A DNA stretch of 50,804 nt from Saprospiraceae bacterium (GTDB lineage: Bacteria; Bacteroidota; Bacteroidia; Chitinophagales; Saprospiraceae): positions 1 to 50,804 of the forward strand of contig JALHOZ010000034.1 in assembly GCA_022842725.1 (NCBI GenBank), in the 5' to 3' direction. Below the pieces are notes generated by a model. The model had not been told where the DNA came from. It searched no databases and saw only the letters and a list, made by a program, of their open reading frames with translations. Shown here piece by piece: positions 45,162-50,804 of this stretch; the first letter of the stretch is position 1, and each line of letters begins with the position of its first letter. Made by a program: the position numbers and the translations under genes.

Positions 45162-45180
45162 CTTTTACGTTAAGTGTACA

Positions 45181-46884
45181 TCACAACTTCACCACTTTAT
45201 GTGTCATGGCAGGTAGTTGGCCTTTGTGATCATTTATTTTTACGTGATACATACCAGACGGAAAATTTGTCATTTCTACCTGTAAATTTTGGCTTGTCTT
45301 AAACAATTGTCTGTGGACTAATAATCCGGTAATATCCCGGATTTCAACCTCATATGAAGATATTTCATCGGTTTGAAAATTCAGAAAATCCGAAGTTGGG
45401 TTTGGATATACGTATGACCATCTTTTAGTCGCCTCCGAAGTTGTAGATGAAGTTTCAATACCTAAATATTCCTCATTAACATTACAAGTGAAATTATAAG
45501 AATAGGACTCACCTTCTTTTCTGATAATAAACTGGTTTTCAATTAAAACAGTATTATTATCTAAAAACTTAGTATCCCAAATATAAGATCTGAAATTACC
45601 ATTCAAATGATTGAATGAAATAAACTTACCTACTTTTTTAGCAAAATTTGTATAAGGTTTTACTTCCAATATATCTATGGTCTCTATTGAATCACTTATC
45701 GTTTTGTAATATTGGGCCAATAAATAGGCGTTACCATTTTTTACACCAATTGGAATAACCTTTGTATAAAAAGTATCTAACCAAGTTACTTGAGGGAATT
45801 TTCCTAACAGATTTCCGTTGGCATCATACCAGCAAAGCCATGAAAAATTTACTGATGGAAAAAATGAATTTGGTTGCATGACTTGTGTCAGGAAAACATG
45901 TTTATCCCGAAAATGGAGCGTTGGATGATTTTGAAAAACATTATTTTGGGGTCTTGCAAAAGCTTCAGTTACATCTATGACTTTTGTCTGACGAAAATTG
46001 TTTATATCGCTAATATCAAACCACCTCAAAAATGCCTGATCCGGTGAATTACCTGAATCTTCTATTGGTTTTGATGTTCCGGTTAAAATAATCATGGTAT
46101 CACCATTGTATAATTGTTCAATCCATGGTTTGTAACCCAAATCATAAGGAGTTACCAGGTCTGTATCGATCTTAAACGTAAAAAGTGGACTTCTTCCAAT
46201 GTTTAAACTATCATTTATGGCATGAATTTCAAGTAAATCCTTGGTCAATCCGTTTTCATTTATTGTTTTATAAAGTAAATTTATATATTTATCGTTTCCC
46301 AGAGAATGAATTCTGGACCCAGAATAAAATCTTGTATTAACAAATTTTGTCGTGTCATTGCCGTAATGGTAGTTTAATTTTGCCCCTGTCAGGTGATCAA
46401 TAGTATGTACTGCCGGGGTAAAAACAAAATCTCGGAAAAATTTATAATCTTTAATCATGGTATCCCGGTCACGGTATGTTAATATATTTATATTACCTTC
46501 TTTATTTATATCAATATAAGGGGAAGACAATTCAAAATTCATTACTCCAACATGGTGATTGTGTTGATGCAGCCAAACTGTTTCACCAGTATATTTATTA
46601 ATTTTATAAAGTAAAAAACCGTCATTGTCAGCGGGGTAACCTGGAATCGCTGAATGGGTATTTTCTAATAAATAAATAAAATCTCCTATTTCTTTACTTT
46701 TATTCCTCCATCTTGGACCGAATTTAGTAATGTTAGTCTTTGCAATTTCAGGAAAATTTGGATCTTCTGAAAAATGAGTCCAATTTAATGATACTGTTTT
46801 AAATGGAGGTATATCAGATATTTCTTGTCCATAAATAAAATTAATATGTATAAAAATATAAATAAACGGAATTATTGTTTTCAT
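45181..46884 (-). CDS. T9SS-exported beta-propeller-like protein, copy A
   Basis: This 567-residue protein has a signal peptide (MKTIIPFIYIFIHINFIYG, then QEISD) and a C-terminal type A sorting domain (SYVYPNPTSDFLNFQ, RDITGLLVHRQLF, FPSGMYHVKI, HKVVKL end). Between them are repeated strand segments such as FLLYKINKYTGETVWLHQH and HTIDHLTGAKLNY, which look like PQQ-type propeller blades. No catalytic motif is recognised. ATG 46884 is used because it gives the signal peptide and equal length with copy B; the in-frame start at 46947 would overlap the lipoprotein gene. It is second in a lipoprotein-T9SS pair. Confidence 0.9.
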   Translation of the reverse strand: MKTIIPFIYIFIHINFIYGQEISDIPPFKTVSLNWTHFSEDPNFPEIAKTNITKFGPRWRNKSKEIGDFIYLLENTHSAIPGYPADNDGFLLYKINKYTGETVWLHQHNHHVGVMNFELSSPYIDINKEGNINILTYRDRDTMIKDYKFFRDFVFTPAVHTIDHLTGAKLNYHYGNDTTKFVNTRFYSGSRIHSLGNDKYINLLYKTINENGLTKDLLEIHAINDSLNIGRSPLFTFKIDTDLVTPYDLGYKPWIEQLYNGDTMIILTGTSKPIEDSGNSPDQAFLRWFDISDINNFRQTKVIDVTEAFARPQNNVFQNHPTLHFRDKHVFLTQVMQPNSFFPSVNFSWLCWYDANGNLLGKFPQVTWLDTFYTKVIPIGVKNGNAYLLAQYYKTISDSIETIDILEVKPYTNFAKKVGKFISFNHLNGNFRSYIWDTKFLDNNTVLIENQFIIRKEGESYSYNFTCNVNEEYLGIETSSTTSEATKRWSYVYPNPTSDFLNFQTDEISSYEVEIRDITGLLVHRQLFKTSQNLQVEMTNFPSGMYHVKINDHKGQLPAMTHKVVKL

Positions 46885-46902
46885 TTCTAATCTTTTAGAT
46901 AT

Positions 46903-46926
46903 GAGGGCAGTAATTGAACTGCCCTC
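46903..46926 (-). other. Conserved hairpin between lipoprotein and T9SS genes, copy A
   Basis: An 8-bp perfect stem (46903-46910 with 46919-46926) sits in the 53-base gap of the pair. It is kept in copy B with one pair changed to a G-U wobble in the transcript. No T-run follows on the minus strand, so it may be an mRNA processing or stability element rather than a terminator. Confidence 0.5.
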
Positions 46927-46937
46927 TTTTAATTTTA

Positions 46938-47675
46938 TTAATCGCATGAATCAATACAAGGTGAAGTGTAAATTCCCCCTTCTTCACAGGTTTCCACTTG
47001 CTGGGTATAATCGCAACCACTACCCCCGTATTGTTGTGATCCGAAGCTTACAATTACCCATTCACCATTTACTTTTGCTAATATGACAGTATGCTCACAA
47101 CAGGCATTACTGCATCTTAATTTATTGTAAATATTATAATATTGTTGAAGTCTTGGATCGTACATTTCATATAAACAGTATTGACTACATGCTGCTTCAA
47201 AATAAGACATACTCACTTGGGGGCTAGGTGGGTTTTCGTTATTTAATATTGCTAATGCAATTGCTCCACGTATTTGGTCTTGCAGGTTTAATATACATGC
47301 TTCAAAGTTACTGCCAGATGAAATACAATTATTAATCCAAATATCAAATGAATCACAGTCGTGAAATTTTAAGGTATAATTCCCAAATAAATATGAAGGG
47401 GTTCCATTACAGACATATCGTTCTACCTCAAAAGTAAAAGAACAATTACCAAATTGAGGTAATTTTACAGTCCATAACATTGTGTCCAAAAAACAGTTAA
47501 CTAAGTCAGAAGGTTCACAAGGTTCAGCGGTCCGGTTTTCAATAATTCCGGAATTTTCAGAAGGTTTTGGTTTGACGTCTTCCCTTTGACAAGACAACAT
47601 AAATAATGTCATCATTATTAAGAAAATACTACTTTTAAGAATTGTGGAATTGTGGAATTTAAATAAATTTTTCAT
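46938..47675 (-). CDS. Cysteine-rich surface lipoprotein, copy A
   Basis: This 245-residue protein has a lipoprotein signal ending at FMLSC (Cys29). The next residues QREDV resemble the basic-plus-acidic lipoprotein export signal that sends Bacteroidota lipoproteins to the outside. A low-complexity linker (about 30-50) leads to a domain with about 16-18 cysteines, including AACSQYC, RCSNACCEH and PCIDSC, probably disulfide-bonded. No family is recognised. It precedes the T9SS gene by 53 bases and has a -7 box at 47752. Two tandem 8-bp units lie in its signal-peptide coding region. Confidence 0.87.
   Translation of the reverse strand: MKNLFKFHNSTILKSSIFLIMMTLFMLSCQREDVKPKPSENSGIIENRTAEPCEPSDLVNCFLDTMLWTVKLPQFGNCSFTFEVERYVCNGTPSYLFGNYTLKFHDCDSFDIWINNCISSGSNFEACILNLQDQIRGAIALAILNNENPPSPQVSMSYFEAACSQYCLYEMYDPRLQQYYNIYNKLRCSNACCEHTVILAKVNGEWVIVSFGSQQYGGSGCDYTQQVETCEEGGIYTSPCIDSCD
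47640..47655. repeat. 8-bp direct repeat (AATTGTGG x2) in the lipoprotein signal region
   Basis: Two perfect adjacent units (47640-47647, 47648-47655) lie about 20 bases inside the copy A reading frame. Copy B has only one unit (50503-50510), which shifts its frame. Confidence 0.85.
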
Positions 47676-47939
47676 GATATAAAATTAAAAAGATGAATAA
47701 ATACAATTTTTTTCTACTGCAAAACCCTTAGTATACAATAGATAACATATGCAAATTTATATAAAATATTTTATTTTACCGTAAAAAAATACAAATATTT
47801 ATATATATTTATTATATATATTTATTATACTTTAAATATCAGTTGATTGAATTAATATTTTATGTATTTAATCCTTTTTTATGGTATGAAGCACCTTTAT
47901 GTAAACATAACATCCATATAATTTTACACATGAATCCGA
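47676..47939. other. AT-rich leader and intergenic region of copy A
   Basis: Part of a 356-base gap. The ~90 bases next to the lipoprotein ATG are almost identical to copy B, then come variable TATA-rich tracts (about 47760-47870), then a second conserved block (from about 47896) with the palindrome TTATGTAAACATAA. No ORF, tRNA or DnaA-box cluster is seen. Confidence 0.6.
47752..47759 (-). promoter_or_regulatory. -7 box for the copy A lipoprotein-T9SS pair
   Basis: Read on the minus strand this is TAAATTTG followed by C, matching TAnnTTTG. It is conserved in copy B. The leader would be about 70 bases and is nearly identical between copies. Confidence 0.6.
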
Positions 47940-48023
47940 TCACAAATCCAATACAATCCCCAGGCTTTCTTTGACCTGCAACGCCGTTTTTTCATCGAGG
48001 CTGCCGACGTAGCGGATGAATAT
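47940..48023 (-). pseudogene. 3' remnant resembling a MazF/PemK-type toxin gene
   Basis: On the minus strand 27 codons end in TGA at 47940-47942 and read IRYVGSLDEKTALQVKESL then GIVLDL, a pattern like the last helix of MazF/PemK toxins. A TAA directly upstream, at the duplication joint, cuts it off. Codons are more GC-rich (CGC, GTC, GGC, CTC) than the surroundings. The stop and last three codons recur at 50793-50804, so the intact gene probably lies right of the window. The family call rests on a short stretch. Confidence 0.4.
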
Positions 48024-48031
48024 TTATATGA

Positions 48032-49735
48032 TCACAACTTCACCACTTTATGTGTCATGGCAGGTAGTTGGCCTTTGTAATCATTTATTTTTACGTGATA
48101 CATACCAGACGGAAAATTTGTCATTTCTACCTGTAAATTTTGGCTTGCCTCAAACAATTGTCTGTGGACTAATAATCCGGCAACATCCCGGATTTCAACC
48201 TCATATGAAGATATATCCTCGGTTTGAAAATTAAGAAATTCAGACGTCGGGTTAGGATAAACATAAGACCACGTTTTATTGATTTCTGACACGGATGAGG
48301 TAGGATTAATGCCTAAATCCTCTTCATTGACATTGCAGGTGAAGTTATATGAATATGTTTTATCACCTTTTCTGACATTAAACTGATTCTCAATCAAAAC
48401 TGTATTGTTATCTAAAAATTGTGCATACCAGGGATATGACCTGAAGTCTCCGTTCAAATGATTATACGAAATAAACTGACCTACCTTTTTGGTTTGATTA
48501 GAATACGGTTTTACCTCTAAAATATCTATGGTTTCCATAGAATCAGCTCCACTTTTGTAATATTGGGCCAATAAATACGCATTACCATTTTTCACCCCAA
48601 TGGGAATAATATTCAAATAAAAAGTGTCGAGCCAGGTCACGTATTGAAATTTACCTAACAATTCTCCGCTTGCATCAAACCAGCACATCCAGGAAAAATT
48701 TTTGGAAGGAAAAAATGAATTAGGCTGCATAACCTGAGTCAAAAAAATATTATTGTCCCGAAAATGAAGTCTGGGAGAGTATTCAAAAACATTGTTTTGG
48801 GGTCTGGCAAAAGCATCGGTTACTTCTATGACGTTTGTCTGGTGAAAATTGTTTTTATCGCTAATGTCAAACCATCGTAGAAATGCCCGATCCGGTGAAT
48901 TACCAATATCTTCAATAGGTTTGGGCGTACCTGTCAATATAACCATGGTATCGCCATTGTATAATTGTTCAATCCATGGTTTATACCCAAGATCATACGG
49001 CGTGACCAGGTCAGTATCTATTTTAAAAGTATAAAACGGATTACGTTCTATGTCCAAACTATCATTGATATTATGAATCTCCAAATAGTCTTTTGTAAGC
49101 CCGTTTTCATTCTTGCTTATGTAATTTAGGCTTATATATTTTCCCGTTTCCTGCATATGCATTCTTGACCCGGAAAACAATCTCGTGTTGATAAATTTTG
49201 TTGTGTCTTTACCGTATTTGTAGTCTAATTTTTGCCCAGTAATATAATCAATGGTATGTATGGCCGGGGTAAAAACAAAATCCCGCCAAAATTTATTATC
49301 AATAGGCATTGTGTCCCGGTCACGATAGGACAATATTTTGATATTTCCTTCTTCATTGAAATCAATATAAGGAGCGGAAATTTCAAAATATTTCTGACCA
49401 ACATTTTGATTATGTTGATGACACCACATTCTTTTCCCGGTAAATTTATCGATTTTATAAAGTAAAAAACCGTCCAATTCTGCATATCCTGGGATAGCAG
49501 CAGTTGTATTCTCCAAAATATAAATATAATCTCCATGTTCAATGCTTTTATTCCACCATCTCGGACCATATTTTGTAATCTGTGGTTTTGATATTTCAGG
49601 AAAATTTGGATCTTCTGAAAAGTGAGTCCAGTTTAATGGTACAGTCATATAAGGTGGAATGTCCGAAATTTCCTGACCAAAAATGATATTGTTATTTATT
49701 ATAATAATACTAATGAAAGTAATGATTGTCTTCAT
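48032..49735 (-). CDS. T9SS-exported beta-propeller-like protein, copy B
   Basis: This 567-residue protein is the same length as copy A and alignable along its whole length by eye. The signal peptide is MKTIITFISIIIINNNIIFG then QEISD; the sorting domain differs at only a few residues (RDVAGLLVHRQLF, INDYKGQLP). Changes cluster in the middle, for example CHQHNQNVG for LHQHNHHVG. Strand-turn repeats again suggest a propeller. No terminator separates its stop from the toxin-like remnant and the copy A promoter region, so read-through into copy A is possible. Confidence 0.9.
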   Translation of the reverse strand: MKTIITFISIIIINNNIIFGQEISDIPPYMTVPLNWTHFSEDPNFPEISKPQITKYGPRWWNKSIEHGDYIYILENTTAAIPGYAELDGFLLYKIDKFTGKRMWCHQHNQNVGQKYFEISAPYIDFNEEGNIKILSYRDRDTMPIDNKFWRDFVFTPAIHTIDYITGQKLDYKYGKDTTKFINTRLFSGSRMHMQETGKYISLNYISKNENGLTKDYLEIHNINDSLDIERNPFYTFKIDTDLVTPYDLGYKPWIEQLYNGDTMVILTGTPKPIEDIGNSPDRAFLRWFDISDKNNFHQTNVIEVTDAFARPQNNVFEYSPRLHFRDNNIFLTQVMQPNSFFPSKNFSWMCWFDASGELLGKFQYVTWLDTFYLNIIPIGVKNGNAYLLAQYYKSGADSMETIDILEVKPYSNQTKKVGQFISYNHLNGDFRSYPWYAQFLDNNTVLIENQFNVRKGDKTYSYNFTCNVNEEDLGINPTSSVSEINKTWSYVYPNPTSEFLNFQTEDISSYEVEIRDVAGLLVHRQLFEASQNLQVEMTNFPSGMYHVKINDYKGQLPAMTHKVVKL

Positions 49736-49764
49736 GACTTAATTTTTCTAATTTACATAAAACA

Positions 49765-49789
49765 GGAGGACAGTTGAATACTGCCCTCC
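49765..49789 (-). other. Conserved hairpin between lipoprotein and T9SS genes, copy B
   Basis: A 9-bp stem (49765-49773 with 49781-49789) sits at the same place as in copy A. The one non-matching pair is G-U in the minus-strand RNA, so the fold survives in the transcript although the sequence and loop changed. Confidence 0.5.
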
Positions 49790-49800
49790 AATTAATTTTA

Positions 49801-50478
49801 TTATTCACACGAATCTATACAAGGTGAAGTGTAAATTCCCCCTTCTTCACAGGTTTCCACTTGTAAGGTATATTCGCAACCACTACCTCCGTATTGATCT
49901 GAGCTACTGCTGACATAAACCCATTCACCATTTACTTTTGCTAAGACAATTTCATGTTCACAACATGCATCGCTGCATCGCAATCTATGGTAAAGATTGA
50001 AATATTTTTCCAATCTCGGGTCGTACATTTCAAATAAACAATATTGACTGCATGCAGCTTCAAAATAGGATATGGTAACTTGCGGACTGGACGGATTTTC
50101 AGTATTCACAATTTTTAAAGACAAGGCCTTTCGAATTTCATCCTGAAGACTCAGGATGCAAGACTCAAAAGTGCTTCCGGAAGCCGTACAATTGTTGATC
50201 CAAATATCAAATGAATCACAATCATGAGAAATCAAAGTGTGGTTACCAAATACATATGTCCAGTTTATACCACATCTGTAACGTTCCACTTCAAAAAGAA
50301 AATCACAGTTTCCAAATTGAGGAATTTTAATGGTCCAGAGTTGTGTATCTTTTTCACACCCTGGACCAATCTCAGGTTCACAAGGTTCAGCGGTCCGGTT
50401 TTCAATAATTCCGGAATTTTCAGAAGGTTTTGTTTTGACGTCTTCCCTTTGACAAGACAACATAAATAATGTCATCAT
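49801..50478 (-). CDS. Cysteine-rich lipoprotein, copy B, with frameshifted 5' end
   Basis: From ATG 50478 the frame gives 225 residues starting MMTLFMLSCQREDV, with the same cysteine pattern as copy A (AACSQYC, RCSDACCEH, PCIDSC). The ancestral ATG at 50530 is kept, but one of two 8-bp units is gone, so reading from it hits TAG after 10 codons. From 50478 only 8 residues precede the lipobox Cys, too short for a normal signal peptide. No in-frame ATG, GTG or TTG lies between. The gene is therefore probably silent, or switched on by repeat slippage. The body of the frame is intact, which suggests recent loss. Confidence 0.8.
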   Translation of the reverse strand: MMTLFMLSCQREDVKTKPSENSGIIENRTAEPCEPEIGPGCEKDTQLWTIKIPQFGNCDFLFEVERYRCGINWTYVFGNHTLISHDCDSFDIWINNCTASGSTFESCILSLQDEIRKALSLKIVNTENPSSPQVTISYFEAACSQYCLFEMYDPRLEKYFNLYHRLRCSDACCEHEIVLAKVNGEWVYVSSSSDQYGGSGCEYTLQVETCEEGGIYTSPCIDSCE

Positions 50479-50606
50479 TATTAAGAAAATACTTCGTCTA
50501 AGAATTGTGGAATTTAAATAAATTTTTCATGATATAAAATTAAAAAGATGAATAAATACAATTTTTTTCTACTGCAAACCCCTTAGTATACAATAGATAA
50601 CATATG

Positions 50607-50614
50607 CAAATTTA
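50607..50614 (-). promoter_or_regulatory. -7 box for the copy B lipoprotein-T9SS pair
   Basis: TAAATTTG on the minus strand, identical to copy A and at the same distance from the ancestral ATG at 50530. Confidence 0.58.
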
Positions 50615-50792
50615 TATAAAATATTTTACATAATAGTAAAAAAATAAATATTTATATATATTTATTTTACATATTTATAATAACTAATATATCAGTTGAT
50701 TGAAATTTAACCTTTTGTTTTTAATCTTTTTTGATTGTATTTCGTAAGTTTATGTAAACATAGCATCCATATAATTTTGCACATGAATCCGA

Positions 50793-50804
50793 TCACAAAT
50801 CCAA
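50793..50804 (-). other. Stop and last codons of a toxin-like gene running past the right edge
   Basis: On the minus strand the final bases read Leu-Asp-Leu-stop, identical to the end of the remnant at 47940-48023. The rest of the gene is outside the window. Confidence 0.35.

What the first reader, a model, noticed from the sequence alone, without database searches (positions are those of the whole stretch)
45180..50804. Tandemly duplicated lipoprotein plus T9SS-propeller pair of unknown function
Two adjacent copies of the same two-gene unit encode a cysteine-rich lipoprotein and a T9SS-exported, probably propeller-like protein. Order, spacing, promoter box and an intercistronic hairpin are kept, which suggests the two products work together at the cell surface. 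No known system with this composition is recognised. This is the best candidate here for an undescribed module.
Basis: partly seen in the sequence, partly recalled or inferred. Interest (0 to 1): 0.72.

Follow-up and report, generated by a model that had tools for sequence, protein, structure and literature searches.

The report
Switchable surface lipoprotein–T9SS propeller gene pairs
The duplicated gene pair belongs to an undescribed, many-copy family of bacterial surface protein pairs whose lipoprotein gene often carries a slippery DNA repeat at its start, so each copy can probably be flipped on or off; the second lipoprotein copy in this window looks switched off.

Summary
In detail: two tandem lipoprotein (L) + T9SS-cargo (T) units with the same order, promoter-like box and intercistronic hairpin. 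Both genes are under purifying selection (dN/dS 0.13-0.14). Relatives show a pattern. Of 97 L genes in loci from the window's family (Saprospiraceae by one named relative), 82 are followed by T within 500 nt and 8 end at a contig edge. Short tandem repeats or G/C runs lie at the 5' coding end of 26 of 97 L genes, against 1 of 110 T genes and 3 of 397 other ORFs. Relatives in one genus differ in copy number and accordingly read ON or OFF. An L-T hairpin is present in 51 of 57 spacers against 6 of 23 controls. L has about 16 conserved cysteines; no significant family match was found for L or the T body. Best reading: a phase-variable, Opa-like surface display module of unknown ligand. Switching itself was not observed.

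The parts
45181..46884 (-). T1: T9SS type A cargo, propeller-like body, unit 1 (from the ATG at 46884)
   Evidence: ORF; Por_Secre_tail E 4.7e-12; dN/dS 0.14 against T2
46903..46926 (-). intercistronic hairpin L1-T1, 9-bp stem
   Evidence: read by eye; class result 51 of 57 L-T spacers of 45-120 nt against 6 of 23 controls
46938..47675 (-). L1: cysteine-rich lipoprotein, 245 aa, 16 Cys after the lipobox Cys, frame ON
47640..47659 (-). octanucleotide repeat (AATTGTGG on the + strand) x2.5 between start codon and lipobox of L1
47752..47759 (-). TAAATTTG promoter-like box of unit 1
   Evidence: sequence; consensus recalled
47943..48017 (-). 25-codon gene remnant between the units, resembles a MazF/PemK C-terminus from memory; Pfam gives no match
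48032..49735 (-). T2: T9SS type A cargo, unit 2
49765..49789 (-). intercistronic hairpin L2-T2, 10-bp stem with one G-U
   Evidence: read by eye; class result
49801..50526 (-). L2: cysteine-rich lipoprotein frame, intact body, no in-frame ATG upstream of the signal peptide: OFF as sequenced
50498..50530 (-). start codon and 10 codons of L2 in another frame, ending in a stop
50503..50514 (-). the same octanucleotide repeat, x1.5, in L2: one unit fewer
50607..50614 (-). TAAATTTG promoter-like box of unit 2
   Evidence: sequence; consensus recalled
50783..50804 (.). contig end, identical to 47930-47951: assembly stops in a repeated unit boundary

Best explanation
The pair is one copy set of a multi-copy, phase-variable surface display module. 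L is exported as an outer-membrane lipoprotein (signal peptide, lipobox, then often Lys plus acidic residues like the surface export signal) and folds into a compact domain probably held by about eight disulfides. T is exported by the type IX system and is probably a beta-propeller kept at the surface; L and T are probably made from one message with a hairpin between them and most likely act as one surface unit, L as anchor or co-receptor and T as the binding face (inferred). The L gene is a contingency locus: tandem repeats or G/C runs between its start codon and its mature part gain or lose units by slipped-strand mispairing and put the lipoprotein in or out of frame. Each copy is therefore switched independently, so a population shows many combinations, as with Neisseria opa genes. 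In this window unit 1 reads ON and unit 2 OFF. Shown by sequence: linkage, repeats, frame states, copy-number differences between related loci, purifying selection on the window's two units. Inferred: reversible switching in living cells, surface location, L-T contact, the ligand and the selecting agent (phage, predator or ligand change).
For: Linkage: 82 of 97 L genes followed by T within 500 nt, 8 at contig edges, 7 without a T by HMM. Repeats (G/C runs of 8 or more, dinucleotides of 6 or more copies, 4-14 nt units of 3 or more copies): within -260..+30 nt of the mature start L 18/57, hold-out L 8/40, T 1/110, control ORFs 3/397, hold-out against control p=3.3e-7; within -500..+30 L 29/57, hold-out 13/40, T 2/110, control 17/397. 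With 4-14 nt units only, the criterion used before the hold-out set was fetched though with a new anchor and window (-500..+30 of the mature start): hold-out 10/40 against control 13/448, p=2.3e-6. Array-centred view: 17 of 25 arrays of 4 or more copies in 748 kb lie near an L start, 41-fold density. Related loci in three species of one genus: TCCGATCAAC x5 OFF / x4 ON; CAAA x6.5 ON / x4.5 OFF / x4.5 OFF; CAACACT x5.7 ON / x8.4 OFF; G8 ON / G8 ON / G9 OFF. Window: x2.5 ON, x1.5 OFF. dN/dS 0.14 (T) and 0.13 (L), with ends at 90-97% and bodies at 63-82% DNA identity. By an automatic rule 11 of 25 callable tract genes and 15 of 71 others are OFF (p=0.037). Of 82 L genes with a lipobox-like Cys, 47 have Lys at +2 and 68 have Asp/Glu within +2..+5.
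Against: No reads or strain series, so switching was not seen; all genomes used are single assemblies, and an indel in a repeat could be an assembly error. More than half of L genes (55 of 97) have no tract even by the wider criterion. The automatic rule of 64 genes without a 4-14 nt array OFF too, and with its own classes the difference (6 of 14 against 15 of 64) is not significant (p=0.18); start-calling errors or decay explain part of the OFF class, although four of those 15 have G/C runs (L106, L122, L217, L227). Of 12 genes that I read as OFF, one (G302:C427) has two stops and another (G205:C248) one stop inside the matched stretch. Many arrays lie upstream of the start codon, where frame switching cannot apply. 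The window's own repeat has only 2.5 and 1.5 copies, below my array threshold. L genes of other families show one tract among nine. Structure models are poor (pLDDT 51 and 63). My ON/OFF calls and the grouping of related loci were made by eye; in one gene (L210) the automatic rule says ON from an internal ATG where I read OFF.
Confidence: 0.73

Rival explanations
1. Birth-and-death family without switching: tandem copies arise by duplication and decay, and the out-of-frame L copies are young pseudogenes; repeats are neutral slippage in a tolerant signal peptide.
For: OFF copies exist, also without tracts; contigs end inside copies; two OFF genes have stops inside the matched stretch (G302:C427 and G205:C248).
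Against: T signal peptides and other ORFs carry almost no tracts (1/110 and 3/397 against 26/97); 10 of 12 genes that I read as OFF show no stop inside the matched stretch; L1 and L2 differ under purifying selection; related loci keep the same repeat with changed copy number.
Confidence: 0.16
2. Fixed (non-switching) surface pair: L anchors T or helps it to fold or leave the T9SS, as a dedicated partner; repeats tune expression only.
For: Constant order and short spacing (median 69 nt over 77 spacers); L upstream also of unrelated T9SS-like proteins in G269 and G302; many arrays lie upstream of the start codon.
Against: Tracts inside the coding 5' end are mostly not triplet and split related loci into ON and OFF frames; T genes without an L next to them exist.
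Confidence: 0.2
3. Weapon with immunity: T is an exported toxin and L its immunity or delivery lipoprotein.
For: Only the gene pair and its varying copy number.
Against: No toxin family matched in the window's T and L, in 54 L relatives or 17 T bodies; L is the switched partner, and an immunity gene that switches off would be harmful.
Confidence: 0.03

Closest known systems
Neisseria opa genes (CTTCT repeats; PMC5953494, passages seen; leader-peptide position recalled)
   Same: Multi-copy dispersed family of surface proteins, non-triplet repeats near the 5' end, independent ON/OFF frames; one L gene here has the same repeat type (TTCTC x4.8, G205).
   Different: Unrelated proteins (lipoprotein plus T9SS cargo against an outer-membrane barrel); unit length varies from 1 to 11 nt among copies; two-gene unit; Bacteroidota; switching not shown.
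T9SS type A cargo (Pfam PF18962, NCBIfam TIGR04183)
   Same: T has the sorting domain above cut-off in both units.
   Different: The body matches no family significantly and comes with the L partner.
Surface lipoproteins of Bacteroidota with the lipoprotein export signal (PMC5080379, outline and abstract seen)
   Same: Lipobox often followed by Lys and acidic residues, like K-(D/E)2.
   Different: Cysteine-rich domain without known relative.
Phase-variable surface lipoproteins of mycoplasmas (recalled; one title seen in a reference list)
   Same: Lipoprotein switched by frameshift.
   Different: Unrelated proteins and envelope; no T9SS (recalled).

Membership tests
SSR phase-variable (contingency) loci, Opa-like | Slippery, mostly non-triplet repeat at the 5' coding end, enriched over other genes | tested here: met
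   26 of 97 L against 3 of 397 other ORFs and 1 of 110 T; hold-out 8 of 40, p=3.3e-7
SSR phase-variable (contingency) loci, Opa-like | Copy number differs between related loci and changes the frame | tested here: met
   four sets in one genus, grouped by eye; window units 1 and 2
SSR phase-variable (contingency) loci, Opa-like | Reversible switching within one clone | not testable with these tools
   no reads or isolates
T9SS type A cargo | C-terminal sorting domain above curated cut-off | tested here: met
   46.5 and 42.1 bits against 27
T9SS type A cargo | Export by T9SS to the surface | not testable with these tools
   experiment needed
Bacteroidota surface lipoprotein (LES) | Lipobox and K-(D/E)2-like signal after the Cys | tested here: inconclusive
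   window L has QRED after Cys; 47 of 82 have Lys at +2, 68 of 82 Asp/Glu in +2..+5; surface location untested
Beta-propeller (PQQ/quinoprotein-like) | Confident propeller fold | tested here: inconclusive
   pLDDT 51 from 4 sequences; the 50 Foldseek rows shown are largely propeller proteins such as GH43, sialidase and methylamine dehydrogenase, at TM-scores of about 0.1-0.4
Polymorphic toxin with immunity | Recognisable toxin domain | tested here: not met
   no significant Pfam match in 54 L or 17 T bodies, none in NCBIfam for the window's four proteins beyond the sorting domain

The most novel reading that the evidence does not exclude
Saprospiraceae and some relatives run a combinatorial surface code: several unlinked L-T pairs per genome, each switched independently by its own repeat and diversified in the body while ends are homogenised, used to vary phage receptors, predator or kin recognition, or ligands. 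It would be a previously unrecognised large family of repeat-switched surface proteins linked to type IX secretion.
Probability: 0.4. Interest if true: 0.86.

Novelty: new variant of a known kind. Interest (0 to 1): 0.74.

Why it matters
Repeat-based phase variation is best known from host-adapted pathogens (recalled); here its sequence marks appear in an undescribed surface module of Bacteroidota, tied to the type IX system. In the open-licence library searched, no paper holds both 'phase variation' and 'Saprospiraceae', none holds type IX secretion, phase variation and tandem repeat, none holds Saprospiraceae, type IX secretion and lipoprotein, and two hold T9SS and phase variation, which I did not open; wider searches listed no such family in the rows shown. 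Most subscription papers are not in that library. If switching is confirmed, metagenome reads can measure it directly and ask what selects it.

Tried and rejected
Tried: scans with diverse T alignments failed for lack of a conserved stretch; a close alignment found one named locus, taken to be the contig of G007 from its length and match position; two scans of viral contigs gave no relative. PDB sequence searches gave best E-values of 0.054 and 0.57. The G018 hit is a large unrelated ORF. The MazF guess for the remnant was not confirmed. N-terminal-only profile hits (G603, G673) were not fetched and not counted as members; some weak or N-terminal matches are inside the tallies.

Considered and rejected: toxin-immunity pair; simple decay as the whole explanation. 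Dropped rows: control ORFs under 150 aa, those overlapping L or T, and those of the other-family stretches; two pairs with a short T match in the Mantel test (80 of 82 kept); spacers outside 25-250 nt in the hairpin test. In ON/OFF reading, of the 26 tract genes 3 were unclear (L104, L131, L145) and 2 had the tract before the start codon (L112, L114). The mononucleotide and dinucleotide criterion was added after I had seen G/C runs in OFF genes of both sets.
Full report
1. What is in the window. On the minus strand lie two copies of one unit: L1 (46938-47675) then T1 (45181-46884), and L2 (49801-50526) then T2 (48032-49735). The window is a whole contig, C34, of a 4.6 Mb draft genome. Its last 22 bases repeat 47930-47951, so the assembly stops at a repeated unit boundary. 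L copies are 75% and T copies 76% identical. T has a T9SS type A sorting domain above cut-off; L matches no Pfam or NCBIfam family. Between the units, dN/dS is 0.14 for T and 0.13 for L, with dS above 1 and so near saturation: both genes have been kept as proteins. DNA identity is 94-97% around the promoter-like box and signal peptide and 90-97% at the sorting domain, and 63-82% between (100-nt steps), as if ends were homogenised and bodies allowed to diverge.

2. L2 is out of frame. The ATG at 50530 gives ten codons and a stop; the frame of the L2 body has no ATG upstream of its signal peptide. L1 and L2 differ there by one unit of an octanucleotide (AATTGTGG, 2.5 and 1.5 copies). The same genome has at least six L genes. 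C47 holds L-T-L, and its left end and the right end of C27 (a T gene with the tail of an L) both stop in the same L sequence, so they are probably neighbours (compared by eye, not joined). C12 holds L-T-T. One L gene on C47 has TTCACAGT x3.5 in its signal peptide, the C12 gene a 5-nt array of 17.8 copies upstream, and the C20 gene AGCGATTC x4.9 in its coding start.

3. The family. A profile of L found matches at E<=1e-5 in 42 of 398 genomes of the window's family, own genome and a few N-terminal-only matches included (36 of 298 at E<=1e-3 with an earlier profile), and T in 28 of 298. One relative is public and named: CAMBRK010000037.1, a MAG labelled Aureispira sp., Saprospiraceae. In a phylum sample of 395 genomes, 8 had an L match including the own genome; two of these matches cover only the N-terminus. 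In the five other genomes, from three other families, ten L-like ORFs were seen; where the N-terminus is complete they have by eye a general rather than a lipoprotein signal peptide, and nine of the ten lie just upstream of an ORF of 447-544 aa. Of these nine partner ORFs two have the sorting domain above cut-off, two below it, and five no match; none matches the T profile.

4. Linkage. In stretches from the window's family a stop-to-stop search found 97 L genes (57 in loci fetched first, 40 in a hold-out set chosen by L alone). T follows within 500 nt on the same strand in 82, 8 end near a contig edge, and 7 have no T by HMM; hold-out alone 32 of 36 testable. Of the seven, G073:C72 is followed by a 550-aa ORF that the T profile misses but which has the sorting domain; G269:C21 and G302:C282 are followed by unrelated T9SS-like proteins (the G269 one scanned); the other four were not examined. 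T genes also occur in tandem or without L. L and T distances correlate, r=0.78 over 80 pairs (maximum of 1000 permutations 0.12), 0.36 for comparisons with L identity under 40%; shared descent contributes to this.

5. Hairpin. Spacers have a median of 69 nt (77 spacers). A hairpin of -8 kcal/mol or better was found in 58 of 71 spacers against a mean of 10.3 for shuffled ones. Against real spacers: 59 of 72 L-T against 18 of 55 other co-directional spacers, and 51 of 57 against 6 of 23 when length is limited to 45-120 nt; the stem begins a median of 14 nt after the L stop. In 25 of 59, five or more T follow within 8 nt. Partial termination or mRNA processing are both possible.

6. Repeats. In my first count (4-14 nt units, 3 copies or more, -150..+200 of the called start) 17 of 67 L genes, 1 of 73 T and 1 of 378 other ORFs had an array. 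By position, 25 arrays of 3 or more copies lay near L starts (37 kb) and 21 elsewhere in 748 kb; for 4 or more copies 17 and 8. With hold-out loci and an anchor at the mature part, arrays were in 24 of 57 L, 10 of 40 hold-out L, 0 of 9 L of other families, 2 of 110 T and 13 of 448 control ORFs (-500..+30). After I saw G/C runs in some OFF genes I added mononucleotide and dinucleotide tracts: 29 of 57, 13 of 40, 1 of 9, 2 of 110, 17 of 397; within -260..+30: 18 of 57, 8 of 40, 1 of 9, 1 of 110, 3 of 397; hold-out against control p=3.3e-7. Because the added tract types were chosen after looking at both sets, the p-value (2.3e-6) is the cleaner one. Seven-nucleotide units are commonest, 13 of 34.

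7. ON and OFF. Of the 26 genes with a tract near the coding start, I read 10 as ON, 11 as OFF, 3 as unclear and 2 as having the tract before the start codon, by eye from three-frame translations; a further OFF gene (G302:C427) has its tract just outside that range, 12 OFF in all. Related loci in three species of one genus: TCCGATCAAC x5 OFF (G269) and x4 ON (G011); CAAA x6.5 ON (G269), x4.5 OFF (G011, G302); CAACACT x5.7 ON (G269) and x8.4 OFF (G302; a third locus, x8.9 in G011, is cut by the contig end); G8 ON (G011, G302) and G9 OFF (second G302 copy). An automatic rule is less clear: by its own array classes 6 of 14 genes with a near array and 15 of 64 without any array were OFF (p=0.18); with the tracts it is 11 of 25 against 15 of 71 (p=0.037). 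So OFF frames also occur without a recognised tract, from start-calling errors, shorter tracts or real decay. In 10 of the 12 OFF genes the search saw no stop inside the matched stretch.

8. Proteins. L: 40 of 79 complete mature parts have exactly 16 cysteines, 65 have 15-18; 82 of 97 have a lipobox-like Cys by a simple rule; Lys at +2 in 47 and Asp/Glu within +2..+5 in 68 of these 82, resembling the K-(D/E)2 export signal (PMC5080379, abstract). Model pLDDT 63, no PDB fold match at E<=0.001. T: pLDDT 51; strands in repeated groups, Foldseek rows shown largely propeller proteins; no PDB sequence relative (best E 0.57). So 'propeller' is likely, not shown.

9. Reading. The closest way of working is that of Neisseria opa genes: many copies, each with a repeat that governs expression of a surface protein (PMC5953494, passages; the leader-peptide position is recalled). 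The pair meets the sequence criteria of a phase-variable locus; reversible switching could not be tested. What the pair binds is open.

Noticed in passing
window 47943-48017 and 50783-50804: A 25-codon remnant between the units, and the end of the same sequence at the contig end, suggest that the duplicated unit carries the tail of an upstream gene (MazF-like from memory; no Pfam match).
   Followed up: partly
L009 1-584 (C47 left end) and L022 9855-9918 (C27 right end): Both contigs end inside nearly identical L sequence; they are probably neighbours carrying a second tandem pair of units.
   Followed up: partly
L009 858-2621 and L022 8085-9854: The T genes of C47 and C27 are nearly identical in the N-terminal half and sorting domain but clearly diverged between (by eye), a mosaic that suggests gene conversion.
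   Followed up: no
L111 6963-7973 and L123 1321-3435: L genes followed by an unrelated T9SS-like protein of about 340 aa (two in tandem in L123) instead of T.
   Followed up: partly
L096, L105, L117, L130, L151 upstream of L: Long 5-7 nt arrays lie upstream of the start codon, where they could affect transcription rather than frame.
   Followed up: no
L165-L171: Relatives of L in other families of the phylum, seemingly not lipidated, mostly upstream of ORFs of 447-544 aa and almost without repeats.
   Followed up: partly
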